Below the pieces are notes generated by a model. The model saw only the letters and a list, made by a program, of their open reading frames with translations. It ran no database searches and was not told where the DNA came from. The translations under genes and the position numbers were made by a program. Below, piece after piece: positions 1,003-63,800 of a stretch of 64,000 nucleotides of DNA. Numbering within the stretch: the first letter of the stretch is position 1; the number at the start of each line of letters is the position of its first letter. Origin of the DNA: Limnomonas spitsbergensis (lineage: Eukaryota; Chlorophyta; Chlorophyceae; Chlamydomonadales); NCBI GenBank assembly GCA_037349105.1, contig JAYJMM010000106.1, positions 1,984,001-2,048,000 of the forward strand, written 5' to 3'.

Positions 1003-1697
1003 GGATCTAGCCTGATCAGCCTGATTTGCCAATTCCTGCTAAAGGTGCTTGTGCAGCGAGATTGGAATTTTGTTTGTATGCAAACGACCTTGGACAGCAT
1101 ATGAATTGCACTTTTGCTGTGGTAATCTCCAGAGAGAGATTGCCAAGTTAAACTCTGAGAATCACTGAGTGTGGCAGCTTAAGTGTTGAGTCCAGAAGTG
1201 ACTTGAAGATCTGACTGAGGATTTATACACCCAGCAGATAATTGCCTGTGTGACTGCAATTTGAGATCAGGTGGATCCAATTTCTCATCATTGACAGAAG
1301 TAAACTTGTGGATAGAACATCCAAGGTTGAAATCGTGTGGGTGTGCCAAAGGATCCCCGCAGGAACGCGGAGCTGAGCGGACACCACCGAAAGGCAACAT
1401 CCACGCAGGGCGTGTGACATCCACGCGGGACGTGAGACATCTAGAAGCAGCCCTACTAGCAAGGTGGGAAGAGCTGAAAGGGCGAAGGAGGATTCCGCCA
1501 GATTGAAACTAGGGAACAGAAAGCGGGAAGGCGAGGTCTTTCCTGCATAGTGCTTTACCTGCCAGCCGATCTTGACTTGCAAAATCCTCACCAGATTGCA
1601 GTAGGAACAAGGGGGCAGAAGCCTAGCGTTAGCAGATCTTGTAGAGGGTGTTGCCAGCACGCTTGCAGGACCGTGCGGTTCGTTAATTGCCTGTAGA
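1003..1697 (+). other. 5' leader of the retroelement, non-coding
   Basis: About 700 bp lie between the candidate primer site and the ATG at 1698. I saw no motif beyond short frames. This would be the untranslated leader and might contain packaging signals, which cannot be recognised by eye. Confidence 0.5.
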
Positions 1698-32521: not shown

Positions 32522-35500
32522 CTGCACGTCCACCGGGCAGGCACCCTCAGCACAATATTCGTGCAGTACCCACAGTACAATATCCTTGCACTACTCACAC
32601 ACACTTATGTGTCGCACATTGATTCAAGGGAGGTCACGCATCAGGGTTTGCAAGGCCGGCTTGATAGCTCGCTTCATGCCAGCTCTCTCATGTGCCGCAC
32701 AAAGACTCAGGCTAAGTGACACGCGCTTGTGGCGGTTCTGATTTGAACGTGCATCAGAGTAAATATACATCTTTGCGTAGCTGCCGGACTGCTACCTCTG
32801 GCCGCACGAGGACAAAAATTCGGTTCCTGAACACGCACAATTGACACAACACAGCAGCAGGGTGTCTGCCTAAACCCTCCTCACATTCAGCAGCGTGATG
32901 AGGCGGGCCAGCACGTGTTTGGACAGCTCGGGCGGCGTGATGGGCGACACAAAGACCTCGAGCGGCCCGGTGGCATTACAGCTGCGGATGGTGGCCTTAA
33001 TGGAGCTCTTGAGCTTCGACCGCGCATCCTCCTGGCAAAGGGTTCAGAGGAAAGGCGTGAGGGTACATGCTTAAGGGTACATGCTTAAGGGTACATGCTT
33101 AAGGGTACATGCTTAAGGGTACATGCTTTGAAGGGTACAGGCGTGAGGCTTCATGCTTAAGGGTACAGTCTTTGAAGGGTACAGGCGTGAGGCTTCATGC
33201 TTAAGGGTACAGTCTTTGAAGGGTACAGGCGTGAGGCTTCATGCTGAAGGGTACAGTCTTTGAAGGGTACAGGCGTGAGGCTTCATGCTTAAGGGTACAG
33301 GCTTAAGGCTTGGATCGCACATCTGCCTGGGGAAGGGTTCAGGGTTTATATTTGGATTACACATCATCCAGGGGAGGGTTAAGGGTTGAGGGGTTTTAGT
33401 TTGGATCGCTCATCCTCCTGGGAAGGGTTTATATTTTAAGGTTCTGGTTTGGATCGTGCATCCTCCTAGAAAAGGTTCATGGTTAAGGGCAGGGATTTAA
33501 GGTTTGGATCGCACATCCTCTCGGTGAAGGGTGTAGGTTTCAGGTTTTATATCTAGATCCCGCATTTTCCTAGAGGAGGGTGTAGGGTTCAGGGTTAAAA
33601 GGATATTCCATACATTTAGGCAAACATTTGCTTTTAATATGTGCAGGCATTGGCGTTCAGGTTCAGGATTCAGGGTCAATGGGATATTCCACACATGTAT
33701 ACACACATTTGCTCTTGATGAGTGCTGGCATTGGTGTTTTGGTTTTACCTGGCTCATTTTAATTCATAAACAATCACCTTTGTTTGTGATGTGCTGGCGT
33801 AGGTGTTCATCAGCTGTTGGAGTGCACCTTGTTGGATCAGGGGCATGGCCACCTCGTCGCTATGTGTCACTGCCTGAGTGGAGGTGCGCCGCAATATCAG
33901 AGGGGACAAATGGGAGGAGTGAGCGGGGAGGGGCATGGCCACCTCGTCGCTGTGAGTCACGGCCTGAGAGGAGAGATCGGGATATGGGCAAAGGGTGCAT
34001 TGCCTGAGAAGAGGCCATAACATAAAAGCGGACTCGTTAAATGAGTTAAAGGGACTGACATGGCCCCTCGGCGCTATGTGTCACGGCATGAGCATAGAGG
34101 CTGTGTTAAGAACAAGGGGAATGGTCAGGTTAGTTACTGGGGTCAGCCAGATGGCCGATTTTTGCCGGGCTGGGGATTCCTTTTTGGGCCGGCTGCGCCG
34201 GCCGGGGTGTCTGAGAATGGCTGGCAGGTGTGGTTTCTTAGGCCATTCCGAATGGCCTAAGAAAAACCTGCAACGTCAAGAGGGATGTGTTCCTTGAGTC
34301 AGCAAGGGCTTCCACGGCCTGAGGATGGAAGCCGGCTTAGAGGGTGACTGGGCTTAGTCTGAGATTTACCTGCAAATTTGAAATTTGAAATTTGCAAATT
34401 TGAAGGCATCAAGAGGAACATGAGTAAGAGGCACTTGACGCAATGGACGACGAGTTAATGAAAACAGTGTACAGTTCTTGCGAATGTTTGGAAAGTGGTA
34501 AGATGAAAGGCAGTAGTGGACTAGTGGTCCACTACTGCCATGCATCTAACACCTTTCCAGAGTCTGGGCGGGGGGTGCGGGAGGGCGCCCTACTAGAGGC
34601 CTATCATTCTCCAGGTCTATCTCCCAGGCTCGCCTGTCTTGACCCTTTTTATGAAGTTTGTACACATTTCTTGCACATTTCTTGGTGCTTTCAAGATAAC
34701 TTGACTACCCATAGTATCAGATACGAGAAGTTGTTCAAACAACATATAGGCACTACGCGGCGCAGAGGCACGAGGGTGAAGGAAACAATGCGGCATGGGC
34801 CGTTTTTCAAACATCGAAACATGCATACTGATATCCCACCTGCTCTATTGCCCAGGCCGCTGTCCCGCTCATTGGATGCGTTAAGTGAGTTAAAAGGGAG
34901 TGACATGGCCCCTCGTCGCTTTGTGTCACGGCATGCGCATGGTGACGGTGTCCCACCTGCTCTATTGCCCAGGCTGCCGCCCCACTGATTGGATGCGTTA
35001 CATGAGTTAAAAGGGAGTGACATGGCCTCTCGTCGCTCTGTGTCACGGCATGCGCATGGTGACGGTGTCCCACCTGCTCTATTGCCCAGGCTGCCGCCCC
35101 ACTGATTGGATGCGTTACATGAGTTAAAAGGGAGTGACATGGCCCCTCGTCGCTTTGTGTCACGGCATGCGCATGGTGACGGTGTCCCACCTGCTCTATT
35201 GCCCAGGCCGCTGTCCCGCTCATTGGATGCGTTACATGAGTTAAAAGGGAGTGACATGGCCCCTCGTCGCTCTGTGTCACGGCATGCGCATGGTGACGGT
35301 GTCCCACCTGCTCTATTGCCCAGGCTGCCGCCCCACTGATTGGATGCGTTAAGTGAGTTAAAAGGGAGTGACATGGCCCCTCGTCGCTTTGTGTCACGGC
35401 ATGCGCATGGTGACGGTGTCCCACCTGCTCTATTGCCCAGGCTGCCGCCCCGCTCATTGGATGCGTTAAGTGAGTTAAAAGGGAGTGACATGGCCCCTCG

Positions 35501-38500
35501 TCGCTTTGTGTCACGGCATGCGCATGGTGACGGTGTCCCACCTGCTCTATTGCCCAGGCTGCCGCCCCACTGATTGGATGCGTTACATGAGTTAAAAGGG
35601 AGTGACATGGCCCCTCGTCGCTCCGTGTCACGGCATGCGCATGGTGACGGTGTCCCACCTGCTCTATTGCCCAGGCTGCCGCCCCACTGATTGGATGCGT
35701 TACATGAGTTAAAAGGGAGTGACATGGCCCCTCGTCGCTCCGTGTCACGGCATGCGCATGGTGACGGTGTCCCACCTGCTCTATTGCCCAGGCTGCCGCC
35801 CCACTGATTGGATGCGTTACATGAGTTAAAAGGGAGTGACATGGCCCCTCGTCGCTCTGTGTCACGGCATGCGCATGGTGACGGTGTCCCACCTGCTCTA
35901 TTGCCCAGGCCGCTGTCCCGCTCATTGGATGCGTTACATGAGTTAAAAGGGAGTGACATGGCCTCTCGTCGCTCTGTGTCACGGCATGCGCATGGTGACG
36001 GTGTCCCACCTGCTCTATTGCCCAGGCTGCCGCCCCACTGATTGGATGCGTTACATGAGTTAAAAGGGAGTGACATGGCCCCTCGTCGCTCCGTGTCACG
36101 GCATGCGCATGGTGACGGTGTCCCACCTGCTCTATTGCCCAGGCCGCCGCCCCACTGATTGGATGCGTTACATGAGTTAAAAGGGAGTGACATGGCCCCT
36201 CGTCGCTCTGTGTCACGGCATGCGCATGGTGACGGTGTCCCACCTGCTCTATTGCCCAGGCCGCCGCCCCACTGATTGGATGCGTTAAGTGAGTTAAAAG
36301 GGAGTGACATGGCCCCTCGTCGCTCCGTGTCACGGCATGCGCATGGTGACGGTGTCCCACCTGCTCTATTGCCCAGGCCGCCGCCCCACTGATTGGATGC
36401 GTTACATGAGTTAAAAGGGAGTGACATGGCCCCTCGTCGCTCCGTGTCACGGCATGCGCATGGTGACGGTGTCCCACCTGCTCTATTGCCCAGGCCGCCG
36501 CCCCACTGATTGGATGCGTTACATGAGTTAAAAGGGAGTGACATGGCCCCTCGTCGCTCCGTGTCACGGCATGCGCATGGTGACGGTGTCCCACCTGCTC
36601 TATTGCCCAGGCCGCCGCCCCACTGATTGGATGCGTTACATGAGTTAAAAGGGAGTGACATGGCCTCTCGTCGCTCTGTGTCACGGCATGCGCATGGTGA
36701 CGGTGTCCCACCTGCTCTATTGCCCAGGCTGCCGCCCCACTGATTGGATGCGTTAAGTGAGTTAAAAGGGAGTGACATGGCCTCTCGTCGCTCTGTGTCA
36801 CGGCATGCGCATGGTGACGGTGTCCCACCTGCTCTATTGCCCAGGCTGCCGCCCCACTGATTGGATGCGTTAAGTGAGTTAAAAGGGAGTGACATGGCCT
36901 CTCGTCGCTCTGTGTCACGGCATGCGCATGGTGACGGTGTCCCACCTGCTCTATTGCCCAGGCCGCTGTCCCGCTCATTGGATGCGTTAAGTGAGTTAAA
37001 AGGGAGTGACATGGCCCCTCGTCGCTCTGTGTCACGGCATGCGCATGGTGACGGTGTCCCACCTGCTCTATTGCCCAGGCTGCCGCCCCACTGATTGGAT
37101 GCGTTAAGTGAGTTAAAAGGGAGTGACATGGCCTCTCGTCGCTCTGTGTCACGGCATGCGCATGGTGACGGTGTCCCACCTGCTCTATTGCCCAGGCCGC
37201 TGTCCCGCTCATTGGATGCGTTAAGTGAGTTAAAAGGGAGTGACATGGCCCCTCGTCGCTCTGTGTCACGGCATGCGCATGGTGACGGTGTCCCACCTGC
37301 TCTATTGCCCAGGCCGCTGTCCCGCTCATTGGATGCGTTAAGTGAGTTAAAAGGGAGTGACATGGCCCCTCGTCGCTCCGTGTCACGGCATGCGCATGGT
37401 GACGGTGTCCCACCTGCTCTATTGCCCAGGCTGCCGCCCCACTGATTGGATGCGTTAAGTGAGTTAAAAGGGAGTGACATGGCCCCTCGTCGCTTTGTGT
37501 CACGGCATGCGCATGGTGACGGTGTCCCACCTGCTCTATTGCCCAGGCCGCCGCCCCACTGATTGGATGCGTTACATGAGTTAAAAGGGAGTGACATGGC
37601 CCCTCGTCGCTCCGTGTCACGGCATGCGCATGGTGACGGTGTCCCACCTGCTCTATTGCCCAGGCTGCCGCCCCACTGATTGGATGCGTTACATGAGTTA
37701 AAAGGGAGTGACATGGCCTCTCGTCGCTCTGTGTCACGGCATGCGCATGGTGACGGTGTCCCACCTGCTCTATTGCCCAGGCCGCTGTCCCGCTCATTGG
37801 ATGCGTTACATGAGTTAAAAGGGAGTGACATGGCCCCTCGTCGCTCTGTGTCACGGCATGCGCATGGTGACGGTGTCCCACCTGCTCTATTGCCCAGGCT
37901 GCCGCCCCACTGATTGGATGCGTTACATGAGTTAAAAGGGAGTGACATGGCCCCTCGTCGCTTTGTGTCACGGCATGCGCATGGTGCCGGTGTCCCACCT
38001 GCTCTATTGCCCAGGCCGCTGTCCCGCTCATTGGATGCGTTACATGAGTTAAAAGGGAGTGACATGGCCCCTCGTCGCTCCGTGTCACGGCATGCGCATG
38101 GTGACGGTGTCCCACCTGCTCTATTGCCCAGGCCGCTGTCCCGCTCATTGGATGCGTTACATGAGTTAAAAGGGAGTGACATGGCCTCTCGTCGCTCCGT
38201 GTCACGGCATGCGCATGGTGACGGTGTCCCACCTGCTCTATTGCCCAGGCTGCCGCCCCGCTCATTGGATGCGTTAAGTGAGTTAAAAGGGAGTGACATG
38301 GCCCCTCGTCGCTCCGTGTCACGGCATGCGCATGGTGACGGTGTCCCACCTGCTCTATTGCCCAGGCTGCCGCCCCACTGATTGGATGCGTTACATGAGT
38401 TAAAAGGGAGTGACATGGCCCCTCGTCGCTTTGTGTCACGGCATGCGCATGGTGCCGGTGTCCCACCTGCTCTATTGCCCAGGCCGCTGTCCCGCTCATT

Positions 38501-41500
38501 GGATGCGTTACATGAGTTAAAAGGGAGTGACATGGCCCCTCGTCGCTCTGTGTCACGGCATGCGCATGGTGACGGTGTCCCACCTGCTCTATTGCCCAGG
38601 CTGCCGCCCCACTGATTGGATGCGTTACATGAGTTAAAAGGGAGTGACATGGCCCCTCGTCGCTCCGTGTCACGGCATGCGCATGGTGACGGTGTCCCAC
38701 CTGCTCTATTGCCCAGGCCGCCGCCCCACTGATTGGATGCGTTACATGAGTTAAAAGGGAGTGACATGGCCCCTCGTCGCTTTGTGTCACGGCATGCGCA
38801 TGGTGCCGGTGTCCCACCTGCTCTATTGCCCAGGCCGCTGTCCCGCTGATTGCCGCATCCGGGTTGCTGATAGCGGCCACCACCTCGGCGCTAGCTCCGG
38901 CATCCACCAGGGCCATCGCTATCGTTGAGCTGTAGGAGGCCATTGAACCTGCGATACATTTCAGCTAAACGTCAGCTACGACAGTTACTTGTCAGGTACA
39001 CCTTCGCACTGGGGCCAGCATCCACCCGGGTTGTGGTAGTGACACACACTGTTTATTTCAGGGAGTGTCAGCTACAATTCACCTACACCTTGGCACTGGC
39101 ACCAGCATTCACCTGGGTGAAGGCACCGAGACACTATTATATCAAAGTGCTTCAGCTACGCCTCAGCTACACCTCAGCTACGTGTCACATACATCTTGGA
39201 ATTGGCGTCAGCATTCAGCTGGGCCAAAGCACTGTGATACGACTATTACAGGGTGCTTCAGCTACCTCTCAGCTACACCTCGGCTACATGTCATCTTCAT
39301 CTTGGAATTGGCGTCAGTATTCAGCTGGGCCAAAGCACCGAGATAAACGACTATCTCAGGGTGCTTAAGCTACAATTCCGCTGCATTACAGCCCAAGGAT
39401 TGGGGGCATGGTGCAGCCTTCCCTGCTGCTTGTGTCAAGTTTTGGACCTTTGGGCCTGGAGGTGGCATGGCCGGCGGCCCCCATAGTTCGAGCAGCGCGA
39501 AATGAATGACACCAGGAGGATGTACCTGCCGTCAACATCCCCAGCAGCGCCCCAGATACCTTCTTTCCTGTCTAACAGCCTCGCCAAGCGGGACACACAT
39601 GCACTGATTTAATGAGTACCGGTAAATACGAAAAAACGGAAAATAAGCGGAGTGGCGGTGCTGTTTTGTCGCCCCTCAGGTTTTTACCTCAGGCCAGGGA
39701 GAGGCGGACAAAATGTGGATACGCGGTATACCGTACTGTAGATTTGCTTTGCCTCCCCTCATAATTAACGCTGTTTTGGGTTTTGAGGGATACATGAAGA
39801 TATGAAGTATCAATTGGCGATGCCAGTTTTCAGTCAGAGATCGATAGTTTTGGTCGAAAGTTTGCCCTGACGGCAGCATTAAAAAGAAATCGTTTTTGTA
39901 TGCCCGAGGGCAGGCAAATCAAATCTATCGTATACCGTAATAGCATTTATATATACATGCATGTGTGTGTGCTTATCAACACGGTGTGGCATCCCCAATC
40001 AGATACATTTTGGAACGGAGGCTCGCAATCAAAAACAAAAAATTACCGGCGCCTGCAAGCGTCATCCCCGTCAGCGTCCTTGAGGCGCTAAAAAGCCCTT
40101 CCCCCAGGACGTTCATGGAAAGTTCTTTAAAGAAAAAGCTGAAAACACAATAACCAATACTGGTACCTGCAATCTTATCCCCGTCTGTGTCCTAGAGGCG
40201 CAAGAAAAACCTTCTCCAGGGCGATCAGGGAGGTTATTTTAAAGGAAGATGCAAGAAAACTTCTCCAGGCCGAAGTTATTTTCAATAAAGCTGCACAAAC
40301 AATCATGTATACTAGTACCTGCAATCATCATCCCCGTCAGTGTCCCCGAGGCGTTCCCCTTCTCCAACACAATAAACTGCCGCAAGCAGCCGGGAGCGCC
40401 ACTGGAGGAGACCATGGCTGCTAGCTCAGGGGTCTTCTGGACCATCTGCAGCGGGAACAGAGCGGGGCAGAGTGGAGAGTGGGAGGGACAGGGAGGGGCG
40501 GGGCGAGGCGGGGCGAGGCGGGGCGAGGCGAGGCGGGGCAGAGTGGGGCTGGAGGAGACCATGGCAGCTGGCTCAGGGGTTTTCTGCACCATCTGCGGTG
40601 GGGACGGAGCGGGGCAAATTGGAGAGTTGGAGGGACAGGGAGGGGCGGGGCGAGGCGGGGTGGAGCAGGGCTGGATGAGACCATGGCTGCTAGCTCAGGG
40701 GTCTTTTGGACCATCTGCAGCGGGAACGGAGGTGGGCAGAGTGGGAGGTGAGAGGGACATGGAGGGGCGGGGCATAGGCGGGGCGAGGCGGGAGGCGTGG
40801 GGCTGGAGGAGATAATGGCTGCTAGCTCAGGGGTCTTATGAACCATCTGCGGTGGGGACGGAGCGGGGCGGGACATTGTGGAGTGAGGGAGGGGCGGGAC
40901 AGGGAGAGGCTGGGTGAGTCTGAGCTGGACGGTTGCGGAATGGGGCTGGAGAGAATGATGGCTGCTAGCTCAGGGTTCTTCTGAATCATCTGCAGCGGGG
41001 ACAGAAGCAGAGCGGGGTCGAGTGGAGAGTGGGAGGGACAGGGCGGGGTGGGGCAGGGCGAGGCGGGGCGGAGTGGGGCTGGAGGGGATCATTGCTGCTA
41101 GCTCAGGGGTCATCTGAATCATCTGCAGCGGGGACAGAAGCGGGGCGGGGAAGAGTGGAGAGTGGAAGGGACGATTATGAGCGGGGCAGGGGCGAGGTAA
41201 ACTAGGCGGTTGCTGAGTGGGGCTGGAGGAGACGATGGCCGCTAGCTCAGGGATCCTATGAACCATCTGCGGCGGGCAAAGGGCTTTGGTCAGATTTCTC
41301 AACCTGGGGCCCTTCTGCCTTAGCAAATGCAACCCACCTTGCAATTCCATGTTAACCCTAAACCCACTGACCCTCCCTGCTGTAAACCTTCAACCTTCAA
41401 CCCACCTGACCATTCTACCCCCATGGCCCTTCTTGCGTACTCCCTGAGCTCACGTGGTTGCACATCATGCCCAAGCCCTCTGCCCACTAAATCCCTCAGC

Positions 41501-44500
41501 CCACCTGCAGCAGTAGTGCCGCAGCGTTGCGCCTAATGGCGGGCGTCATCTTGTCGGTCAGAGCCTGTACCGTGGCCTGCACAACGCCTGTGTTGGCCAC
41601 CTGCAAAAACAGGCGTCAGGATTCAGATCTGTCAGATCTAGCTGGCGTCCTTTTGTCGGCCAGAGCCTGCACTATGGCCTGCACTGCGCCTGTGTTGGCC
41701 ACCTGCAAATCAGGCGTCAGGCTTCACATCTAAACAGGCGTCAGGCTCCAGATCTATCGGATCTAGCAGGCCTCAGGTCTGTCAGATCCACCAGGCTCCA
41801 GATCTATCAGACCTACCAGACATCACATATATCGGATCTATCAGGCATCTTCAGATCTATCCCATTATTACGCTTCAGATCTATCACATGGATTAGGCTT
41901 CATATCTACCGGATCCACCTGGCATCATGTGGGGTGTCCCAGGCATGCCCACCTGGTTGGCCAGCTCCTCGTGGTGGACGCAGACTTGGCTGAGCGTGTT
42001 GAGGGCGGCGGCCTTGAGGTCAGGCGGCGTCAACGAGCCGCGCACCTTTTAGGAGAGGTTAGGTTAACGGGTTCAGGGTTAAGGCTGGTACTGAGAGGCG
42101 TGGAGAAGAAATAAACGTGGCTGAGCGTGTTGAGGGCGGCGGCCTTCAGATCTGGAAGCGTCAACCAGCCGCGCACCAGTTGAACAGGAAGGGGGAAGGC
42201 ACCGGGGAGCGTGGAAAAGAAAGCTGAAAGGTCAGGAGGCGTCAATCAGCCATGCAACTTGGGAGAAAACTCCAGTCCCTTCAGTCCCCAAGCTTGGTTT
42301 TCAAAACTTGGAATGAACAAATTTTGAGCCCACAGCTTTCAGGCGCCACTGCGACCTTCAAGCTGCCCCCCCTCCTCCCTTCACGTCCATTATGCATGCG
42401 AGAGGTTCCAACGCAACGTGTCCTCCTCCTCCTCTGCGTGCTCACCGTCCATGTGAGCGGCTCCAGGGCCTTGTGTTCCACAATCGCCTCGGCCATGTCC
42501 CTCACCCCCTGAGTGGCATAACACCCCCTACCTGTCTCCCCCGCACTCTCACCGTGTGTTTGAGAGGTTCTGTTCCACATACGCCACAGCCAGCTGCCAG
42601 CTGCATGCAGCCATGCCTCTCAGTAGTACCACGACTCTAGCACCCCCTCTTAATTCCTCCGCATGCTAACCATTCATGTGAGCGGCTCCAGGCCTTTTGT
42701 TCCACATACGCCACAGTCAGCTGCCAGCTGCATGCAGCCATGCCTCTCAGTAGTGCCACGACACTAGCACCCCCTCTTAATTCCTCCGCATGCTAACCAT
42801 TCATGTGAGCAGCTCCAGGCCTTTTGTTCCACAATCGCCTCAGTCAGCTGCCAGCTGCATACAGCCATGCCTCTCAGTAATGCCACGACACCCACCGCTA
42901 CAGCACCCCACGCCATAGCACCACCCCCTCTCAATCCTCCCGCATGCTCACCATCCGCGTGAGCGGCTCCAGGGCTTTTTGCTCCACAATTGCCTCGGCC
43001 AGCTGCGGGCTGCATGCTGCCACGTTCCCCAGCGCACCAACGATGGCCTTGACGAGGCCGTTGGGCGACCCTGGGCTCAATAACAGGGCCACTAGTGTGG
43101 ACAGCAGCTGCGAGCAAGTGTGAAATAAGACCCAGGTTTTAGTACTGGACGAGGCCGTTGGGTGACCCTGGGCTCAATAGCAGGGCCACTAGTGTGGACA
43201 GCAGCTGCAAGCAAGTGTGAAATAAGACCCAGGTTTTAGTTCTGGACGAGGCCGTTGGGTGACCCCGGGCTCAATAGCAGGGCCACTAGTGTGGACAGCA
43301 GCTGCAAGGAAGTGTGAAATAAGACCCAGGTTTTAGTACTGGACGAGGCCGTTGGGTGACCCCGGGCTCAATAGCAGGGCCACTAGTGTGGATAGCAGCT
43401 GCAAGCAAGTGTAAAATAAGACCCAGGTTTTAGTACTGGACGAGGCCGTTGGGTGACCCCGGGCTCAATAGCAGGGCCACTAGTGTGGACAGCAGCTGCA
43501 AGCAAGTGTGAAATAAGACCCAGGTTTTAGTTCTGGACGAGGCCGTTAGGTGACCCCGGGTTCAATAGCAGGGCCACTAGTGTGGACAGCAGCTGCAAGC
43601 AAGTGTAAAATAAGACCCAGGTTTTAGTACTGGACGAGGCCGTTGGGTGACCCCGGGCTCAATAGCAGGGCCACTAGTGTGGACAGCAGCTGCGAGCAGG
43701 GATGAAATAAGACCCAGGTTTTAGTACTGGACGAGGCCGTTGGGTGACCCTGGGCTCAATAGCAGGGCCACTAGTGTGGACAGCAGCTGCAAGCAAGTGT
43801 GAAATAAGACCCAGGTTTTAGTACTGGACGAGGCCGTTGGGTGACCCCGGGCTCAATAGCAGGGCCACTAGTGTGGACAGCAGTTGCTAGCAGGGATGAA
43901 ATAAGACCCAGGTTTTAGTACTTCTTGAGGTTGGTCTATATTCAGCATGTTCACCAATGTGGATAGCAGCTGCAAGCAAGTGTGAAATAGGGCCAAGGGT
44001 TAAGGGTCTAGATTTTAGTAGTGGTTGGGGGGGCGGTCTATATCAAATCAGCAGGGCCACCAGTGTGGATATCAGCTGCAAGCAAGCGTGTAGGGATAAG
44101 GGTAAAGGTTCCATGATTTGAACATGGTTGGGATGCGTGTTTTAACCTGGATAAGGTACCTGGTCTCCCGCGTGGTCAGCAGCTGCAAGCAAGTATAAAA
44201 AAATGATTGAGGGTCAATGATGTGGGAGAAGTTGAGATTGGTTAAGATCAATGCAGCTGGGCCACCAGGGTGGACAGCGGTGGCAAGCTAGTATGGAGGA
44301 AGGCTCTGGATGAATGATTGAGAATTTAGAAATGGTTTTGTTTTGTTTTGTTTAGATCTTTTAGGCATGGCCCCCATGGGGCCAGAGGCACTACAGGCAC
44401 GAACTGTGAATGATTATGTATAATGCCTTCCTTAAAGCTGATAACGTCAAGGGTTTGTCCACATCAGACAGGGTTCAAGGTTTGTCAATATCGGATATGT

Positions 44501-50543: not shown

Positions 50544-51095
50544 ATGCCCTACGCAGCGAAAGCCGCGTCCGGATCTTCCGAGGCCCCCGGGATCCTCAAG
50601 CGCCTGACCCAGTCCCTGTCTGCAGTGGCCGCGGCAGCCTCCCTGATCCTCACACCGACCAGCCTGGCAGCACAGCTGGAGACCATCTCAGCACCCACAG
50701 CGCCTGCAACCCGAGAATTCCCCGCCGCCGCTGCCTCAGCAGCAGCTGCAGCAGGGTCTGGCAACCTGCGAGACAGCCCCGCCGCACAGCTGCAAGCTCC
50801 TGCCCTCAGTACCAGCGCCAGCACTATTTCCATCGCCAGTGGCACAATTGTCAGCAACACCACCACCACCAGGAAGTACAGCAACAGCAGCAGCAGCGGC
50901 GGTACAGACATCAGCATGAGATCTGATGTGGCTTTTGTGGCTTCTGTGGCAGCTCCCCCATTGGACGACCGACAGCCCGGGAAGGTGCAACTGGCTGCTT
51001 CTGCTCAGCTTCCGGCAGGAGGGCCCCAGGGGTTGCCACCAATTCCCAGCTCTTTCCCACCCTTGCCGGTGGTCCAAACATCCAGCTATATGGAG
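50544..51095 (+). CDS. M16 gene exon 1
   Basis: 184 codons from ATG. Leader MPYAAKAASGSSEAPG, hydrophobic LSAVAAAASLILTPTSLA, then a long Ser/Thr/Ala/Pro-rich linker. Donor GTAGGC at 51096. The start is the first ATG in frame; an upstream exon is possible. A ~65-bp copy of the exon's end, with its donor, lies at about 51230-51297. Confidence 0.72.
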
Positions 51096-54000: not shown

Positions 54001-57000
54001 CTGCCCCCCAAACATATCGGTTTCAATAACGCCTCCCCCCTCCCCAACCTGCTCTGTGCCCCCTGCCCCCCAAACATATCGGTTTCAATAACGCCTCCCC
54101 CCTCCCCAACCTGCTCTGTGCCCCCTGCCCCCCAAACATATCGGTTTCAATAGCGCCTCCCCCCTCCCCAACCTGCTCTGTGCCCCCTGCCCCCCAAACA
54201 TATCGGTTTCAATAACGCCTCCCCCCTCCCCAACCTGCTCTGTGCCCCCTGCCCCCCAAACATATCGGTTTCAATAACGCCTCCCCCCTCCCCAACCTGC
54301 TCTGTGCCCCCTGCCCCCCAAACATATCGGTTTCAATAACGCCTCCCCCCTCCCCAACCTGCTCTGTGCCCCCTGCCCCCCAAACAGATTGGTTTCAATA
54401 ACGCCTCCCCCCTCCCCAACCTGCTCTGTGCCCCCTGCCCCCCAAACATATCGGTTTCAATAACGCCTCCCCCCTCCCCAACCTGCTCTGTGCCCCCTGC
54501 CCCCCAAACATATCGGTTTCAATAACGCCTCCCCCCTCCCCAACCTGCTCTGTGCCCCCTGCCCCCCAAACATATCGGTTTCAAGAACGCCTCCCCCCTC
54601 CCCAACCTGCTCTGTGCCCCCTGCCCCCCAAACATATCGGTTTCAATAGCGCCTCCCCCCTCCCCAACCTGCTCTGTGCCCCCTGCCCCCCAAACATATC
54701 GGTTTCAATAACGCCTCCCCCCTCCCCAACCTGCTCTGTGCCCCCTGCCCCCCAAACATATCGGTTTCAATAGCGCCTCCCCCCTCCCCAACCTGCTCTG
54801 TGCCCCCTGCCCCCCAAACATATTGGTTTCAATAACGCCTCCCCCCTCCCCAACCTGCTCTGTGCCCCCTGCCCCCCAAACATATCGGTTTCAATAACGC
54901 CTCCCCCCTCCCCAACCTGCTCTGTGCCCCCTGCCCTCACACAGATCGGCTTGTCCACTGTTGCTGCCGAGGTGTTGCGTTCTGGAGGCAGCCTGCAACA
55001 CCCAACACCGGGTCTGGACGCGCGCCTGGAGGACTTGGCTGCAAGTGAGCTGAAATCAGTGCTGATCAATTGCGCCGCAATTCAGAAATGGTGCAAGTCA
55101 TTACTGTCTCCTACTGATAAAAGTAGCCGATTTTGCCTTACAATTGCTTAATATTGCTGTGAACTCATCTATGTAATCCAGCCACCGTAATGACCGCAAT
55201 CGGCACAGCACTGGCTGAAATGCATGGGGATGTGATGCGAGTAGAGTGCAGGCGCAAAAAAAAAATGCGGGCAGGAAAGGACCCTTGGTAATGAACTAGT
55301 GAAGTACTCTCACTCATGAACACCTGGTCTCGACGCGCGCCTGGAGGACTTGGCTGCAAGTGAGCTGAAATGCATGCATGGGGATGTGATGCGAGTAGAG
55401 TGCAGGCACGAAAGAAATAATGCGGGCAGGAGAGGACCCTTGGCAATGAAGTATTTTAACTCATGAACACCCGGTCTCAACGCGCGCCTGGAGGACTTGC
55501 CTGCATGTGTGCTGAAACGCATGGGGATGTGATGCGGATAGAGCGAGAGAAGACAGCAGCAGTAAAAATATCCCATATTTCACCTCCTGTCCTCAAGTTT
55601 GAACCCTAAACCCAAGTCCCTAGACCCTCAAGTTTGAATTCCCTTCAAGAACAGACGGTCGCTGGGTTTTGAACCTAGCCTGCGTTTTTCATGTTGGGGT
55701 GTGTGGCTTCCTCCTCCTCTCACCCATCCCCCCTTCCTCCTGCCTCCTCTTCCCTCTCCCTCCTCCTCCCCATTCCCTGTTTGGGGTGTGTATCATTCCA
55801 TGTTGGGGTGTGTGGCTACGTTGATGCTGTGGCTTCTAACCTGAACCCTGACGTGGCAGGCTTGAAAACCCCTTGGCAATCCCCTCTGGAGTCTCACCCA
55901 ACCTCTGGATATTTAGCAGTGCCAAAAAAATAAGGATCTCTCCTGGAATCTCTCATGCAACCTCTGAAAATAAGCAGTGCCAACAATTTAAGGATCTCTC
56001 CTGGAACCTCTCATGCAACCTCTGAAAATCAGCGCTGCGGCTGTCAAAGTGCCGAGCTCCTCTGGGGTGCATCAATCCTGTCAAACGAATTGTGTACCCT
56101 TCCAAACCTAACCTCATCGGCCCGCCCATCTGTACTTTTTCTTGTTTATTTCGCTCTTCGATGCCTCGTAAGCATAATGTAATGATGTAGATTTAAGGGT
56201 TGAGAGGTGAAAGCTGCCTCTAGATGCCTCGTAGGCATCCAAGGTGTCTGCAGGCAATGTGACGCTCATAGGCATCTCAGGTGTCTGCAGGCAATGTGAC
56301 GCTCATAGGCATCTCAGGTGTCTGCAGGCAATGTGACGCTCATAGGCATCTCAGGTGTCTGCAGGCAATGTGACGCTCATAGGCATCTCAGGTGTCTGCA
56401 GGCAATGTGACGCTCGTAGGCATCTCAGGTGTCTGCAGGCAATGTGACGCTCTCCTCGGGATTTTCATAAATCCTGCTTAAAGATCCCTTAACCCTGAAC
56501 CCGTTGTATCAAACCTCTCCTGTAACCCTATAAAGGACCTTATAAACCCTTTTTAGCATAAATCCTGCTTACAAAACCCTGAACCCTTTATACCAAACCT
56601 CTCCTGTCCATCTCTCTGTAGCCCTTGTTTGGTTGTTTTTATTCATTTGTTTGCTCTGTGATGCTCGTAGGCATTGAGGTGTCAGCCGGCAATGTAACGC
56701 TTTCCTCGGGATTCTCATAAATCCTGCCTAAAGAACCTTTAACACTAAACCCTTTATTCTAAACCTCTCCTGTCCTAAACCCTTTCTAGCCCTTTGTTCA
56801 TTTTGTTTATTTGTTTGCTCTGTGATGCTCGTAGGCATTGAGGTGTCAGCCGGCAATGTGACGCTCTCCTCGGGATTCTCCTGCGCCAAGGAGGATGTTC
56901 AGGAGGTGGTGGGGCTGCTGGGGGAGCTGGTCAGATCCCCCTTACTGCCGGCGGGCCGGATCCAGCTCGTCAAGAACCAGATCTACAGCGTGCTGGACCA

Positions 57001-60000
57001 CCAAGTAAAGAATGATCAAGATCAACTAAAACACTGGTTTCGCGGTGTAGCAGTTCTGGTGTCTCAGTTGCGCAAAATAAATGTTAAAAACTGGTTTAGC
57101 GGCGAGACTGGTGGCCTGAATGAATACTCACACAACAGGAACTTCAAGTAGGCACCATCAGGCCAGCACAGCATTTGAAGCTGGCACGGCGGGTTAGGGT
57201 TCAGGGTTAAGGGTTTAGAGCTGGCACGGTGGTTCGGTATGTCACCTGCCTCCGTGTTTCTCGTATTGCGCGTCAGACCACGCTCTTTGGCGGGCCGCTG
57301 GGCAGCCACGACTGAGCTGGTGTGTACTAAAGTTGACTAGCCCCCTTGGCCAATGACCCAAGCAGCAGGGCTGCTGCACCCCAGCACCAGGCCCTTCGAC
57401 TACAGGCTGTGATGCAGCTGAATTGTGGCTGAAGCACCCTACACAAATTGGTGTCATGTCTTAGGGGTAAGGCTTAGGTTAAGCCCTAAACCCTACACAA
57501 ATTGGTGTCATGCCTCATTCCCAACGCTGCATTTCACGTGATTGAAAGCTGTGACAGGGTGGACTTGTCACAATATGGTCATATCGACTATGCAAAGTGC
57601 GGATCATAAGATGTCAAGAGAGTCCATCTCCCAACATATGTTCCCCTTTGGTACAGTCCTGTTACAAAAGCGATTTGCCTGTCCCCTAAGTCGCCAATAC
57701 TGCAGTCCCCCTCCTGGCCAAGGCCATATTTGAACGTGTTTTACCTTTTCCCTACACCATCAACGCCGTATCCCCCTTTTTTGATCGTAGCCTGCTTATC
57801 CCTCAGCTCTCCAAGACTGCTGCATGTCCCCATGTTAATGGTTTGTTCCTTCCCCCTCTTTCGCTGACTTCAGTTTGACGACCCAGGCAAGGTTGCAGCC
57901 AGGGTTGCAGCGACAGATGTACCTCTGCCCCCCTCTCCTCCTGATTGCAGTACGATAACCCCGGCCATATTGCAGCCCAGATGTTGCAACCACTGATGTA
58001 CCTCTGTCCTCCCTCTCTTCCTGACTGCAGTTCAAAGACCTAGGCCATATTGCAGCCCAGATGTTGCAGCCCCTGATGTACCTCTGTCCCCCCTCTCTTC
58101 CTGACTGCAGTACGAAGACCTAGGCCATATTGCAGCCCAGATGTTGCAGCCACTGATGTACCTCTGCCCCCCCTCTCTTCCTGACTGCAGTATGACGACC
58201 CTGGCAATGTTGCAGCCCGCATGTTGCAGCGACAGATGTACGGTGCGGACAGCATCTACGCCAGGCAAGCCACCAAAGTCAACGTGGCTGGCATCAACAG
58301 GGAAGACATTGAAGGGTGAGCGGTCAGCCAGGGGACAGTAGACAGGCAGACGTGCAGGGGATGAGGGAGGGAGGAAAGAGTGAGGGAGGGGAACGTATAG
58401 TAGGAGGGAGTAAGTGTGACCCCAGGGGATGAAAGTTTGATCCACCCTCGGACCTGACGAGAGGCCCAAGCTTCAGGGCTGTGCTTCATGAGAGCCCCTG
58501 GTTGCAGTCCGTATGTCATGGCTGGCTGTCATGTATGGCTGAGCTTAAGCAAAATTATAGCTGAATGGTAGCTGAATGGTAGCTGAATGGTAGCTGAAGC
58601 ACCCTCAACAAAAGAGTGAACCATGGTTACACTCCACTGGGTTGACAGGCCACTGCCACCTGGCATGACCCAGGCAGCATCCGCCCTTTCAAATGCAAAG
58701 GTGGATTCAAATCCCAACCGCCCAGGCACCTGACCAAGTGGCTACGGCCGGATGGCGCTGTGCTCGGCCTGGTCGGGGACTTCGAATCCGCCGACATGAT
58801 GCGCCTGATCCGGGAGACGTTTGACGACTGGGCGCCAGCGCCCGGCCAGCCCGCCAAGCCTGAGGCGCCGGCGGGCCAGGCGCCGCCAGAGTGGTGGGCT
58901 CGCCTCGAGGCAGACCAGCGGGCGGGTGCGGGCCTGCCGGACGTCGCGGCAGTAGGGGTTGCGGCTGCTTGGTGGACGCCAGCCAATGTGGAGCCTCATC
59001 TGCCGCAGGCGCTGGTTAGCAGCGTCGAAAGCAGCAGTGGCGGATTGTCCGAACCTGCATCTCCAATGGCCGCTCCTCCCTCTGTCACGGACGCGGCCGT
59101 CTTGTCTCTTCCAGGAAGTGGTCGAGGAGGGGGAGCGGTGGATTTAACCACTTATCCGATCGGAAAGATCTTTTTGGTGGACCGGCCTGGCCTGATGCAG
59201 GTGATAAAACCTAAACCCTGAACCCTTAACCCTAAACTAGGCCTGGTCTGATGCAGGTGATGAGGGTAGCCCCGTTCATTATTTCAAGGCTCTTCAGCTA
59301 CAGCTCAGCTACGTCACGGCCCACAGCTGAGAGGGCCTAATGCATTAAGCCCTGCTGATTGTACAAGCAATAGGGCACAGGTAAAGCTGAATTGTGTTAC
59401 CATGGCTTTCTACTCACTCAGTGAGACACCCCCTTGGCTCCCTCCCACCAAGGGGGGGTCGGCCTTTTAGGGATTCAACCAGTGCTGTGCAATTGCACCG
59501 TAATTCAGAAATCGTGCAAGTAATTACTGTCCTTTACTGGTAAAAGTAGCTGAATTTGCCCTGAAATGACGATGCCTGAAACTCAGTGAGACACCCCCCT
59601 GGCTCCCTCCCACCCACGAGGGGTACGAGGGGTCAGTCCCACAGGGATTCAACCAAGGTCGTATTGCAGCCTCTGGATTTTCCTTGTCTGTACCCCCTGT
59701 CTGTACAAAACTGCCAGAGTGATCCTTTCAGGCTCGCCCCCGCTAATGCCCCTCACCTCTCATTCCCATCCTCTGCCCCCCACAGGATGCTTGCCAACCC
59801 CAATGCCCCGCACCCCTTGACCCCCGTTTGTCGATCACTCCACCCCTACCCTCCCCTGTTGCCCAGGCTAGTGTGGAGGTGGTTGAGCCGGGCGTGACCT
59901 CGGCAGCCCCTGATGTATCCCCCATTTCGCCCCCCTTTGTTGATCACTCCACCCCAATCCTCTGTTGCTGCCCAGGCTAGTGTGGAGGTGGGTGAGCCGG

Positions 60001-60899
60001 GGGTGTCCCTGTCGGACCCTGATGTCTTTCCACTGGAGATCCTCTCTGGCATGTACAACGGATTTGGGGGACGCTTGTTCAATGAGGTAAGGACATGGGC
60101 TGACGGATTTGGGGGGCGCTTGTTCAATGACGGAATGACATGGGCTAAGGGCTTAAAGGGGTACTTTTTCAATGATGGCAGGGCACCAGGTGGGAGCTTT
60201 GGGGATGCTTGTTCAATGATGTTGGGACACGACATGTCGGATGCCGGGGATGCTTGTTTAATGACGGCTCTGCGGGCCTGCTCACAATGGAGAACAAATG
60301 GTTGTCTTTGAGTGCAGGTCCGCTCCCGCGACGGCCTGGCGTACTCGGTCTCCGCCGCCTGGGATTCCCCAATGGACCACCGCGGCACTTTCAATGCATC
60401 GGCGCAGACATCGTCACCCGGCCCGCTGCTTGCGGCACTCGACGCGGTGCTCAAACCGCCATCCGTGCAGGCCGTACCCATGTCTACTCAGAGAATAGTT
60501 CCGGGGTTGGATCTTGGATCTAGAGGTGTGGATCCGATGTTGGATATATCCTTGTCTGCGGATCTAGCCGCGTGGCCGCGGGGCGAGGAAGTGAGCGCGT
60601 CCAAGGACCGCTACCTGAACAGCTTTGTGTTCAATTTCGCCTCAAAGTCGCAGCAGCTGCGGCGGCTGCTGGCCGGCGAGTTGCTGGGCCTGCCCAGGGA
60701 CTTGCTGGCACGGCTGCAGCAGGGTGTGGCGGGGGTTCGGCCCGAAGACGTGCGCGAGGTGGCGGCGCGACGGCTGCACCCGGACGTGGGGCAGGTGGTT
60801 GTGGTGGTTGGGGACGCCGGAATGGTCAGGGCCAGCCTGTTGGGCTCTGGGTTCTCAGCGGACCGGCTGGTGATGCTCAAAGTACCCGTTATAGAGTAG
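50544..60899 (+). CDS. M16-family (insulinase/processing-peptidase fold) protein without zinc site, 8 exons
   Basis: Exons: 50544-51095, 51852-51962, 54945-55044, 56835-57004, 58191-58315, 58726-59200, 59976-60086, 60318-60899; ~741 aa, all joins GT-AG and in phase. M16 signatures: LPNGLHVFLIEDPEVPLIRG, GGGRYSSPDDK, VLRSGG, ILGLVGDF-like VLGLVGDF, PIGKIFLVDRPGLMQ, NGFGGRLFNEVRSRDGLAYS. The HXXEH zinc motif expected soon after the GGGRYS segment is absent (the position reads TVAAEVLRSGG), while the RSRDGLAY segment seen in M16B partners is kept. So it is probably a non-catalytic subunit or pseudopeptidase like those paired in bacteria and plastids. The N-terminus has a Ser/Ala-rich leader and a hydrophobic stretch ending SLA-AQ, suggesting plastid or thylakoid targeting (inference). 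Confidence 0.9.
51852..51962 (+). CDS. M16 gene exon 2
   Basis: 37 codons, DVLPNGLHVFLIEDPEV to GGGRYSSPDDK, acceptor CTGCAG, donor GTGATC. Start of the M16 N-terminal domain. A ~40-bp copy of the donor side lies at 52072-52115. Confidence 0.9.
52116..52750 (+). repeat. G-rich low-complexity sequence in M16 intron 2
   Basis: Iterations of GGAGGAAAGGGGGGCAAGG, resembling the bases just after the exon 2 donor. A long G run lies at about 52540-52552. No coding. Confidence 0.85.
52842..54934 (+). repeat. ~62-bp minisatellite (~34 copies) echoing the acceptor of M16 exon 3
   Basis: The unit has a pyrimidine tract (CTGCTCTGTGCCCCCTGCC), then CCCCAAACATATCGGTTTCA. The real acceptor reads CTGCCCTCACACAG followed by ATCGGCTTGTCC. 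In most units the AG is lost (ACATATCGG), but several (near 53210, 53270, 53517, 54384) keep CAGATTGG. Confidence 0.95.
54945..55044 (+). CDS. M16 gene exon 3
   Basis: 100 nt (IGLSTVAAEVLRSGG...LEDLAA plus one base), acceptor CACACAG, donor GTGAGC. This is the segment where active M16 enzymes have HXXEH; it is missing. Donor-side copies lie at about 55318-55375 and 55465-55510. Confidence 0.9.
55045..56834 (+). other. M16 intron 3 with exon-edge copies
   Basis: It contains two copies of the end of exon 3 (55318-55375, 55465-55510) in ~150-bp units. About six ~45-bp units at 56222-56460 and one longer copy at 56650-56730 echo the acceptor of exon 4 (CTCGTAG|GCAT). The rest is unremarkable. 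Confidence 0.75.
56835..57004 (+). CDS. M16 gene exon 4
   Basis: 170 nt, two bases completing Ser, then IEVSAGNVTLSSGFSCAKED to YSVLDHQ. Acceptor CTCGTAG, donor GTAAAG. Matches the IE..G...V.FSSL and L..EVLR.P...F. helix region of M16 proteins. Confidence 0.9.
57292..57445 (+). repeat. Dispersed ~150 bp repeat family, copy in M16 intron 4
   Basis: Starts GCCGCTGGGCAGCCACG, core CAAGCAGCAGGGCTGCTG, end GCAGCTGAATTGTGGCTGAA followed by GCACCCTACAC. One of the best preserved copies. Confidence 0.65.
57866..58180 (+). repeat. ~80-bp tandem copies of the acceptor side of M16 exon 5 (4 copies)
   Basis: Each has a pyrimidine tract, CTGCAG or CTTCAG, then a version of TACGACGACC...GCAGCC and CAGATGTACC. 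They lie at about 57868, 57951, 58031 and 58111, followed by the true exon at 58191. Each retains AG, so alternative acceptors are available. Confidence 0.9.
58191..58315 (+). CDS. M16 gene exon 5
   Basis: 125 nt (YDDPGNVAARMLQRQMYG...INREDIEG), acceptor CTGCAG, donor GTGAGC. Matches the R.DDP..IA.R.F...LYG pattern of bacterial M16 proteins. It is chosen over its four upstream copies because only this one runs on through ADSIYARQATKVNVAG. Confidence 0.9.
58440..58612 (+). repeat. Dispersed ~150 bp repeat family, diverged copy in M16 intron 5
   Basis: The end is extended by tandem TAGCTGAATGG units (three) before GCTGAAGCACCCTC. The core is diverged. Confidence 0.45.
58726..59200 (+). CDS. 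M16 gene exon 6
   Basis: 475 nt (HLTKWLRPDGAVLGLVGDF ... PIGKIFLVDRPGLMQ), acceptor CCCAG, donor GTGATA. It links the two M16 halves and has an Ala/Pro-rich, probably disordered insertion (APAPGQPAKPEAPAGQAP). A donor-side copy lies at about 59239-59262. Confidence 0.88.
59201..59975 (+). other. M16 intron 6 with exon-edge copies
   Basis: Contains the exon 6 donor copy (59239-59262), two similar ~60-bp stretches with TGAGACACCCCC (59425 and 59588), and an acceptor-side copy of exon 7 at about 59822-59920 (GCTAGTGTGGAGGTGG). Confidence 0.7.
59976..60086 (+). CDS. M16 gene exon 7
   Basis: 37 codons (ASVEVGEPGVSLSDPD...GFGGRLFNE), acceptor GCCCAG, donor GTAAGG. Matches the LGGLF..LRE core of the second M16 domain. 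A donor-side copy with ATTTGGGGGGCGCTTG lies at about 60095-60135. Confidence 0.9.
60318..60899 (+). CDS. M16 gene exon 8 (last)
   Basis: 193 codons plus TAG (VRSRDGLAYSVSAAWDSP ... VVVVGDAGMV ... LKVPVIE), acceptor GTGCAG. The end of the second M16 domain, with the RSRDGLAYS substrate-side motif and the usual VVVVGD strand near the C-terminus. Partial copies of the exon's end lie at about 61003-61120 and 61225-61290. Confidence 0.92.
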   Translation, partial: VRSRDGLAYSVSAAWDSPMDHRGTFNASAQTSSPGPLLAALDAVLKPPSVQAVPMSTQRIVPGLDLGSRGVDPMLDISLSADLAAWPRGEEVSASKDRYLNSFVFNFASKSQQLRRLLAGELLGLPRDLLARLQQGVAGVRPEDVREVAARRLHPDVGQVVVVVGDAGMVRASLLGSGFSADRLVMLKVPVIE

Positions 60900-63800
60900 G
60901 TTTTGAGCTGTACCCTTGAACCCTTAAGCCTCCAGGTTTGCGCCAGACTACCTGGTGATCCTCATTGTTGAAGCAGGAGGCATAGGCCACTAGGACATCT
61001 CGCGCAAGTACCCGTCATTGAGCATGTCGTCAGTCCAGAGTTTTGAGCTGTACCCCTACACCCTCAAGGCCTCAACCCTCCAGGTTTGCGCCAGACTAAC
61101 TGGCGATGCATCAAGTCCCTATCAGAGAGTAGGCTGCCTGTTAAGGGTTGCGGGCATAAATCGGTTTCGGGCATTGGTAGCTCACCTAGTGCTACGGCCG
61201 AACGGGTGGCTTCCTTTATCCACGCCTCAGGGCCTTTATTTATGTATTCGTAAACCCTCTGGGTTTGCGCCAGACCGCTTGGTCATGCCATAAGTCCTCA
61301 TCACCGAATCATGGTCCTACTGATTGGTGCACTTGCTGAAGGCACATGTTTGAACACTCCGCGGATGGGATGGGACGCCAACAGGCGCGTGGGGGTAGCA
61401 GGTAGGAGACACTTGTCCAATAACTACGACCATCGTGACTATCATGGAGCTATGAAGTCGCACAGCGTGACGGCCAGCCAGGGGGGGTGATGTGGACGCT
61501 TTATTATAGTCATGTTTCCACACGCCATGGGTGGGGCGACAAAGGGCGGAACGAGGGTGCGAAGGTTCAGGGCATCGAGGCACAATCCGGCTAGTCTTGT
61601 GTCGTGTTTAGCCGTATCGCGAGACTTCCTTGGTAGTGCAATCCAGCTAAATCTGTGCCGTATCGAGCCGTTTCATGCTGTATCGGGCTACCATGGTTTA
61701 CTAGGGGCATCTGTTATTCTGTTTACTAATGGCATGTTTGATTACACGCCCAAGATAGGAAGCCGACGGCCCGCCGTGTTAGGGTTTAAGACTGAGGGCC
61801 ATTTGTTCACTGTTGGTACATGTCAACACGACGCAGCACCCACAGTGTTAGGGGTCAGGCCTTCAGGGTTTGGGCCATTTGTTCTCTGATGGTATTTGTG
61901 TCTTGACGCCATAGATGGGGCGCAGGGGGGCACATGTTCAAAATGGTATCGTGATTATTCCACAAGTAGATGTATAATTAAATGCAATACAAGTACCGGC
62001 AGTATGCTATGACAACACCAGCCAGCCAGGGAGGGGGGTGAGGACAAGGTGATGATGCTTCCTGAGTGCTCGGGGAAATTTGATTGGCAGTTTGAAGAAC
62101 CTTTGGTTGTGAGGCCATGAGCTGTGTATTGCTCCAGCTGTGCGGTGACGGCGCGGATGTGGCTTTATCCCAAGCTACGTTGTTTCCTTAACTCTCACGT
62201 CCCCCACAGTCGTAGCTTTCTTTCCTTCTTTGCTCCAGCTGTGGACGTGTGCCAGTTTGTGCACCATGCTTGCGTGACAGTTTCAGGGTCCACTGTCACG
62301 AGGCAGCAGTGAACATGAAGTTTCACTGCGCACAGAAGACACTATTGGAGTGCTAAGTGCCCTTTATAGGGGTTAACTAGCGTGTGCAGGAGCGATAAAC
62401 TGCTGGCAGACAGTTTATCCTCGACTAATCCTCGGGTTACTGCACTAACCTTTGATGATTCCTCTCTTACTGTTGACAAAAGTAGCGAAGTGAACTCGTT
62501 CCTGCTGGGGCTAGTTGTACTGAAGCCGACTGTTGACAGTAGGAAATGGTGTGGAACGGACTTGAGAGTCGATCCAGCCGAAGTGATGAGAAAGGAGGAG
62601 CCGAAGAGGCGACTCTCTGATGAGGAGGATCGGCTGCTGGTGCAGTAAATCGACTTGGTAGCCAGAAAAGGCCTGGGTAGCAGCTCACAGTGTCGAATTA
62701 TAACCTAGAGATAGAACTGTTGAAGCTCACAGTGTAGGGTATAATCGAGAGATAGAACTGAGATGGATGAAGTAGAGAAGCTGATGCTAGAGATCACGAA
62801 TAAGTGTAGTGGTTAACTAGAGATATTCGATCAGCGTAACGATCAGGGCCTATTACTGAATGATGTGGTCTTGGAGAAATAGGATCAGTGTAGTGTAAAC
62901 TAGAGATCTCCTATTAGTGCAGTGTCCTGGCCTTGATAAGAGGCCGAAATATCACAGTTGGACGTTAATCCCAGAACAGTTTACAGATAGCAGGGTGATT
63001 CAACTTCGGTATGTTACTTGAGTAAGAAGAGAAGAATGCCTGGAGTTAGCCAGGCATCTTCTAAGTACCACAAACAGATGAAATCCGAAACCAAAAAGCG
63101 GTACAAGCCACCCATACGTGCGGTGCACCCATACGTCGTGACACCACTGGTTTGGGGAGTGAGCAGTTCTTGCAATAGTCCCTTCCAAGAGAATAAACAT
63201 TTTGTTTTGTCGGCGTGCATTGCTGAGACAGGGCTCAACTAGTGCTTATGTACTTCAGTCGATGCAGTAACCAGTACATACTATGCATGGCAAAATGAAG
63301 AGGTATGTGACTCTCGATCCACTGACGGCAGGCCGACATCAACTTGTTTCGATGTATAATGTACAAAATCGCCACCCAACCACCCAAGGTTAAGAGCAAG
63401 ATTGGGAGGGCATGATAGGGGTCACAACTCAACAGGTCAATGGCGTTACATCTCTGGGCCCTGCCCAAAAAGGCTTGGCCGCGTGGGCAACTCAATAGGT
63501 CAATGGCGTTACACCTATGGGCCCTGCTCAAAAAGGCTCGACCGCGTGGGCAACTCAACGGGTTAAAACATTTTAGAGTCCGCATGCACTTAGCGCCATT
63601 GATTCATTACGTTCTCATGTATCGCGTCATTGTTTCATTCCTATGCCATGTCACTGTTGCTCTCTGGTCGAATGCACAGGGGGCACCGCCGCACCGGTCA
63701 TTCCTTGTTTACTGTGCTAGCTACTTAGTGATCAAACCAGTTTGCATGCGCCTATCTCTTGCACCAACTATGATGCCACGCTGCACTCAGGACTGCAAGC

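What the first reader, a model, noticed from the sequence alone, without database searches (positions are those of the whole stretch)
32885..61290. Introns of two adjacent genes are built from copies of neighbouring exon edges
Nearly every exon of PF16 and of the M16 gene has diverged copies of its first or last ~30-60 nt, including the splice site, in the adjoining intron. Acceptor-side examples: 33310-33580, 40535-41280, 42115-42182, 43108-43920, 52842-54934, 56222-56730, 57866-58180, 59822-59920. Donor-side examples: 42445-42870, 44812-45030, 47477-47660, 48340-48430, 51230-51297, 52072-52115, 55318-55510, 60095-60135. One process, tandem duplication across exon-intron borders, would explain arrays that look unrelated by unit length (45 to 135 bp). 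It yields rows of decoy splice sites and could be how introns grow in this genome.
Basis: seen in the sequence. Interest (0 to 1): 0.86.

Follow-up and report, generated by a model that had tools for sequence, protein, structure and literature searches.

The report
Introns grown from copied exon edges
In a green alga (probably the Arctic snow alga Limnomonas spitsbergensis) long introns are rich in local repeat copies, and many of these copies include the edge of the neighbouring exon with its splice signal; introns there likely grow by short tandem duplications that ignore exon borders, and the splicing machinery would have to find the right site by position rather than by sequence.

Summary
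In two adjacent genes (FAP194, not PF16; and an M16 peptidase) I modelled 15 introns: 17 of 30 exon edges have a copy in their own intron against 1 of 600 control draws, and 14 of 15 introns have at least one copied edge. It is not local: of 61 introns from kinesin and CCT genes in 28 loci, 20 carry an exon-edge copy; 7,930 of 48,640 windows have a local copy, against 3 in the control. Longer introns hold a larger copied share (76 introns, Spearman 0.61). The border is not special: exon edges are copied about as often as mid-intron sequence (ratio 0.91, 95% 0.71-1.15), exon interiors hardly ever. So exon edges look like passengers of border-blind tandem duplication. Copied splice sites are mostly intact, and at 19 of 31 edges the best copy scores at least as well as the real site, so position would have to decide; that is inferred, and no RNA was tested. 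The anatomy is known as amphioxus 'mirages' (PMC3087553). New are the scale, the green-algal setting and the measurement that the splice border is about as open to duplication as the intron.

The parts
32885..47919 (-). FAP194-like armadillo gene, modelled part: exons X1 47778-47919, X2 46464-46597, X3 42952-43107, X4 41953-42045, X5 41505-41600, X6 40319-40445, X6b 38818-38948, X7 33778-33873, X8 32885-33031 (first and last exons of the gene not modelled)
   Evidence: one open frame of 374 aa; FAP194 E 1.7e-89; alignment with relatives
50931..60850 (+). M16 peptidase gene, modelled part: exons M0 50931-51095 (start arbitrary), M1 51852-51962, M2 54945-55044, M3 56835-57004, M4 58191-58315, M5 58726-59200, M6 59976-60086, M7 60318-60850 (end arbitrary)
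   Evidence: one open frame of 596 aa; PF05193 68.8 bits; alignment with relatives
34834..38852 (-). 117-bp x34 array beginning in exon X6b; unit holds the X6b donor edge and a copy resembling the X7 acceptor edge
   Evidence: unit found nowhere else in the genome apart from a nearby 86% match at 34035-34106
43051..43922 (-). 97-bp x9 array: X3 acceptor edge, mostly intact AG in the copies
   Evidence: found only here
40517..41276 (-). 122-bp array: X6 acceptor edge
42571..42891 (-). 127-bp array: X3 donor edge; a further copy at 42453-42490
42132..42176 (-). copy of X4 acceptor edge (39/45)
33333..33429 (-). 49-bp array with diverged X8 acceptor edge, AG kept
44787..45094 (-). 150-bp repeat: X2 donor edge copies
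47463..47689 (-). 120-bp repeat: X1 donor edge copies
51256..51295 (+). copy of M0 donor edge (31/40)
52067..52100 (+). copy of M1 donor edge (32/34)
52880..54936 (+). 62-bp x33 array: copies of the M2 intron end reaching the acceptor, at most about 8 exon nt; all 26 ATCGG-bearing units read AT where the true site reads AG
   Evidence: found only here
55220..55543 (+). 147-bp repeat: M2 donor edge copies
56228..56880 (+). 37-bp array (56228-56452) and 164-bp repeat (56575-56880): M3 acceptor edge; includes the genuine acceptor of M3 at 56835
57852..58241 (+). 80-bp array: M4 acceptor edge, reaching into exon M4
59821..60025 (+). 109-bp repeat: M6 acceptor edge, reaching into exon M6
60058..60146 (+). 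45-bp repeat: M6 donor edge, beginning in exon M6

Best explanation
Introns in this genome likely grow by repeated short tandem duplication (80% of repeat spacings in the sample are about 35-210 bp) that is blind to exon-intron borders, so copies of exon edges with their splice signals are carried into introns, and the spliceosome is predicted to ignore them because it would choose the site nearest the exon. Shown here: the copies, their occurrence in a sample of other genes, the link with intron length, copy density that does not peak at the splice border, near absence in exon interiors, mostly intact decoy signals, and, for three arrays, confinement to their own locus. Inferred: the mutational step (slippage or unequal exchange that seeds and expands arrays), the near-neutrality of border-spanning duplications, and cross-exon splice-site choice as the reason they are tolerated.
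For: Window: 17 of 30 edges copied against 1 of 600 controls. Sample: 20 of 61 introns with a copied edge, 7,930 against 3 of 48,640 windows. Length: median 291 nt without and 682 nt with local copies (61 introns); Spearman 0.61 over 76 introns. Border-blindness: mean coverage in copy-bearing sample introns 0.42 mid-intron, 0.25 and 0.41 in the 24 exon nt at donor and acceptor, 0.01 deeper than 60 nt in exons; exon-edge/mid-intron ratio 0.91 (0.71-1.15) over 48 copy-bearing introns, 0.89 (0.57-1.28) for high-identity copies in 33. Decoys: 42 of 49 acceptor copies keep AG, 35 of 43 donor copies keep GT; best decoy at least equal to the true site at 19 of 31 edges. Three arrays occur only at their own locus. 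A database and minigene study finds that exons between long introns use the sites closest across the exon (PMC9225289, passages).
Against: Random-placement simulation underpredicts border copies in the window in every setting tried, and in the sample if arrays expand threefold or more. Window alone: length correlation weak (Spearman 0.46, p 0.08). 45 of 69 intact donor decoys (the counts include the in-frame 117-bp array) would keep the frame open, so donor decoys are not clearly unusable. [quoted passage not shown] I saw no clear difference in copied edges between short and long copy-bearing introns (5 of 18 below 450 nt, 18 of 48 above). Exon models outside the window rest on Pfam matches and splice-site scores, not on transcripts.
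Confidence: 0.72

Rival explanations
1. Border-targeted duplication: splice junctions (AG|GT-like motifs, or damage linked to transcription there) seed the duplications, so exon edges are a preferred source of intron sequence.
For: 18 of 22 arrays tested inside modelled introns match best, out of 34 borders, a border of their own intron, three of them weakly (26-30 against control maxima 17-22). Window and part of the simulation settings show more border copies than random placement.
Against: Coverage does not peak at the border: ratio 0.91 (0.71-1.15) overall, 0.79 (0.54-1.10) in the sample. Exon matches decay more slowly than intron-intron matches because the exon is conserved, which inflates border counts (inference).
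Confidence: 0.15
2. The copies are kept by selection as alternative splice sites that regulate or diversify these genes.
For: Decoys keep their dinucleotides and strength; the 117-bp array stays open in frame from exon X6b.
Against: Splice columns are kept no better than neighbouring columns. Repeat spacings are not enriched in multiples of 3 (22 of 83 in the sample, 32 of 87 in the window). 40 of 42 intact acceptor decoys would shift the frame or add a stop. The pattern occurs in unrelated genes.
Confidence: 0.06
3. Introners or other mobile elements inserted in these introns.
For: Introners are known to fill introns in several algae and protists (recalled).
Against: Units of three large arrays match nowhere else in the genome, and the copies match the exon next to them. 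Only three arrays were searched.
Confidence: 0.02
4. New introns born from exonic tandem duplication (AGGT model) rather than lengthening of old introns.
For: Tandem genomic duplication is an accepted route of intron gain (PMC3443670, passages).
Against: Copies lie beside introns and contain both exon and intron sequence; whether the intron positions are old was not tested.
Confidence: 0.03
5. Assembly artefact of long-read sequence.
For: Copy numbers of long arrays can be wrong in such assemblies (general knowledge).
Against: Copies diverge from the exon (for example 39/45, 31/40) and edge copies occur in 13 of 28 sampled loci.
Confidence: 0.02

Closest known systems
[quoted passage not shown] the 2002 Adh paper was not held)
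   Same: Tandem units spanning donor or acceptor borders, copies with AG/GT kept in many units, unit lengths of tens to about 160 bp; both edges can be affected.
   Different: Described there gene by gene, with transcripts checked and length polymorphism seen; here a green alga, 28 sampled loci plus two genes, tied to intron length and shown not to peak at the border; no transcripts tested.
Intron gain by tandem genomic duplication (PMC3443670, passages)
   Same: Tandem duplication inside genes makes intron sequence and duplicates splice-like sites.
   Different: That model makes a new intron from exon sequence; here existing introns appear to lengthen.
Variable tandem repeats at exon-intron boundaries of human segmental duplicates (PMC2812944, passages)
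   Same: Minisatellite units at exon-intron boundaries alter intron structure.
   Different: 27 intron modifications in recent human paralogues, with new introns and alternative transcripts; here unrelated conserved genes.
Introner elements (recalled)
   Same: Make up intron sequence across algal and protist genomes.
   Different: Dispersed families; three arrays tested here are private to their locus.

Membership tests
Mirages (border-spanning minisatellites) | Tandem repeats that span an exon-intron boundary | tested here: met
   17 of 30 edges in the window; 20 of 61 sampled introns
Mirages (border-spanning minisatellites) | Both donor and acceptor boundaries can be duplicated | tested here: met
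   18 donor and 24 acceptor edges among 76 introns
Mirages (border-spanning minisatellites) | Many but not all copies keep AG/GT | tested here: met
   42 of 49 and 35 of 43
Mirages (border-spanning minisatellites) | Normal splicing of the mRNA despite the copies | not testable with these tools
   only indirect: relatives' proteins lack insertions at the junctions, with one exception at M6/M7
Mirages (border-spanning minisatellites) | Length instability between haplotypes | not testable with these tools
   one assembly only
Intron gain by tandem genomic duplication | Intron at a position absent in relatives | not tested
   relatives' gene structures were not available
Introners | Similar sequence in introns of unrelated genes | tested here: not met
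   three arrays matched only their own locus
   FAP194 E 1.7e-89, SPAG6 3.5e-38, PF16 2.4e-27
M16 peptidase | M16 domain match above the curated cut-off | tested here: met
   PF05193 68.8 bits, cut-off 23; the N-terminal domain PF00675 was not listed

The most novel reading that the evidence does not exclude
Most of the length of long introns in this alga is made by a standing, border-blind tandem-duplication process, so splice sites are copied freely and splice-site identity is set by position across the exon rather than by sequence: a genome-wide natural experiment in which full-strength decoy sites compete with the real one at a large share of long introns.
Probability: 0.42. Interest if true: 0.75.

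Novelty: new variant of a known kind. Interest (0 to 1): 0.62.

Why it matters
How introns become long without transposons, and how the spliceosome tells a real site from near-identical copies beside it, are long-standing questions. Here both could be read from one genome: the decoys differ from true sites mainly by position, in many genes, and the published genome that this one matches comes with RNA-seq and Iso-Seq (PMC11228838). It also warns gene predictors, which may call decoys as exon ends.

Tried and rejected
PF16 as the gene name: rejected for FAP194. A first model without exon X6b treated X6-X7 as one intron (searches use 14 window introns); window counts were redone with 15 introns. 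The control was spoiled by paralogous kinesin exons in other loci (controls passed more often than the real tests) and was replaced by reverse-complement controls. Arrays 33053-33304, 41742-41886, 44447-44582 and 55892-56033 do not match best an edge of their own intron; 48468-48519 and 50182-50468 lie outside the modelled introns. For one search I gave 24 of the TRF rows of the region, about one per array; several short-period rows were left out by me. The M2 acceptor array turned out to be intron sequence with at most about 8 exon nt. Rfam gathering search: 0 matches in the window. One M16 exon against PDB: no M16 hit. Paper searches for border duplications (listings seen) showed amphioxus and human cases but no algal one; the library lacks most subscription journals, so absence from print is not shown.

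Dropped rows: kinesin, 139 matches reported, 64 in the 20 fetched loci, 33 adjacent exon pairs tried, 30 resolved, 28 kept at score >=3. CCT, 72 matches, 63 in the 11 fetched loci, 36 pairs tried, 35 resolved, 33 kept. Low-complexity windows were left out of windowed counts.
Full report
What was given.

Which genome. The window is contig C106, 1984001-2048000, of a 260,226,709-base assembly in 124 contigs. The published Limnomonas spitsbergensis assembly has 260,248,090 bases, 124 contigs, 54.15% GC and a mean intron of 788 bp (PMC11228838; abstract, passages and the first part of section 16 read). The closest protein of the minus-strand gene is from Chlamydomonas eustigma (79% over the whole model), placed in the same clade in that paper. 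The identification is inferred from these matches. The parts of the paper that I read do not mention border duplications.

Gene models. I read exons from homology and GT-AG sites. The minus-strand gene has nine modelled exons that join into one open frame of 374 aa; the plus-strand gene has eight, 596 aa. The first is closest to FAP194, a Chlamydomonas protein of the same cryo-EM entries as PF16 (E 1.7e-89; SPAG6 3.5e-38; PF16 2.4e-27). The second is an M16 peptidase. Alignments with three relatives each show no insertion at the junctions, apart from a one-residue gap beside X7/X8 in one row and an insertion at M6/M7 in the C. eustigma M16 prediction that two other relatives lack. Regular use of a decoy instead of the site next to the exon would add such an insertion.

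Noticed in passing
1605-17333 (+): A 5,242-aa stop-to-stop frame with a zinc knuckle, reverse transcriptase, RNase H and integrase domains, plus a C-5 cytosine methylase match (24.3 bits, cut-off 22) and a PHD finger: it looks like a Gypsy-type retrotransposon carrying a DNA methyltransferase domain.
   Followed up: partly
34807-38964 (-): The 117-bp array (39 codons per unit) is open in frame from exon X6b for 1,385 codons. If a later donor copy were used, the armadillo protein would gain multiples of 39 aa; not tested.
   Followed up: no
32885-60850: The two neighbouring genes correspond to C. eustigma proteins g52.t1 and g53.t1, whose consecutive numbers suggest that the gene order is conserved.
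   Followed up: no
P0136 (C. eustigma g53.t1), at the position of M6/M7 (60086/60318): The C. eustigma M16 prediction has an insertion of about 60 residues exactly at the M6/M7 junction; two other relatives lack it. It may be a retained intron or a decoy called by the gene predictor.
   Followed up: no
52880-54936: In the 62-bp x33 array all 26 units with ATCGG read AT where the genuine M2 acceptor reads AG: one change before expansion could have disarmed the whole row.
   Followed up: partly
26345-29292: A 12-bp x243 array (CAAGCTGCCTAC) nearly 3 kb long outside the two genes.
   Followed up: no
45055-46466: A 1.4-kb CT-rich array of about 18-bp units lies directly after the X2 donor, between the exon and its diverged donor-edge copies.
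   Followed up: no
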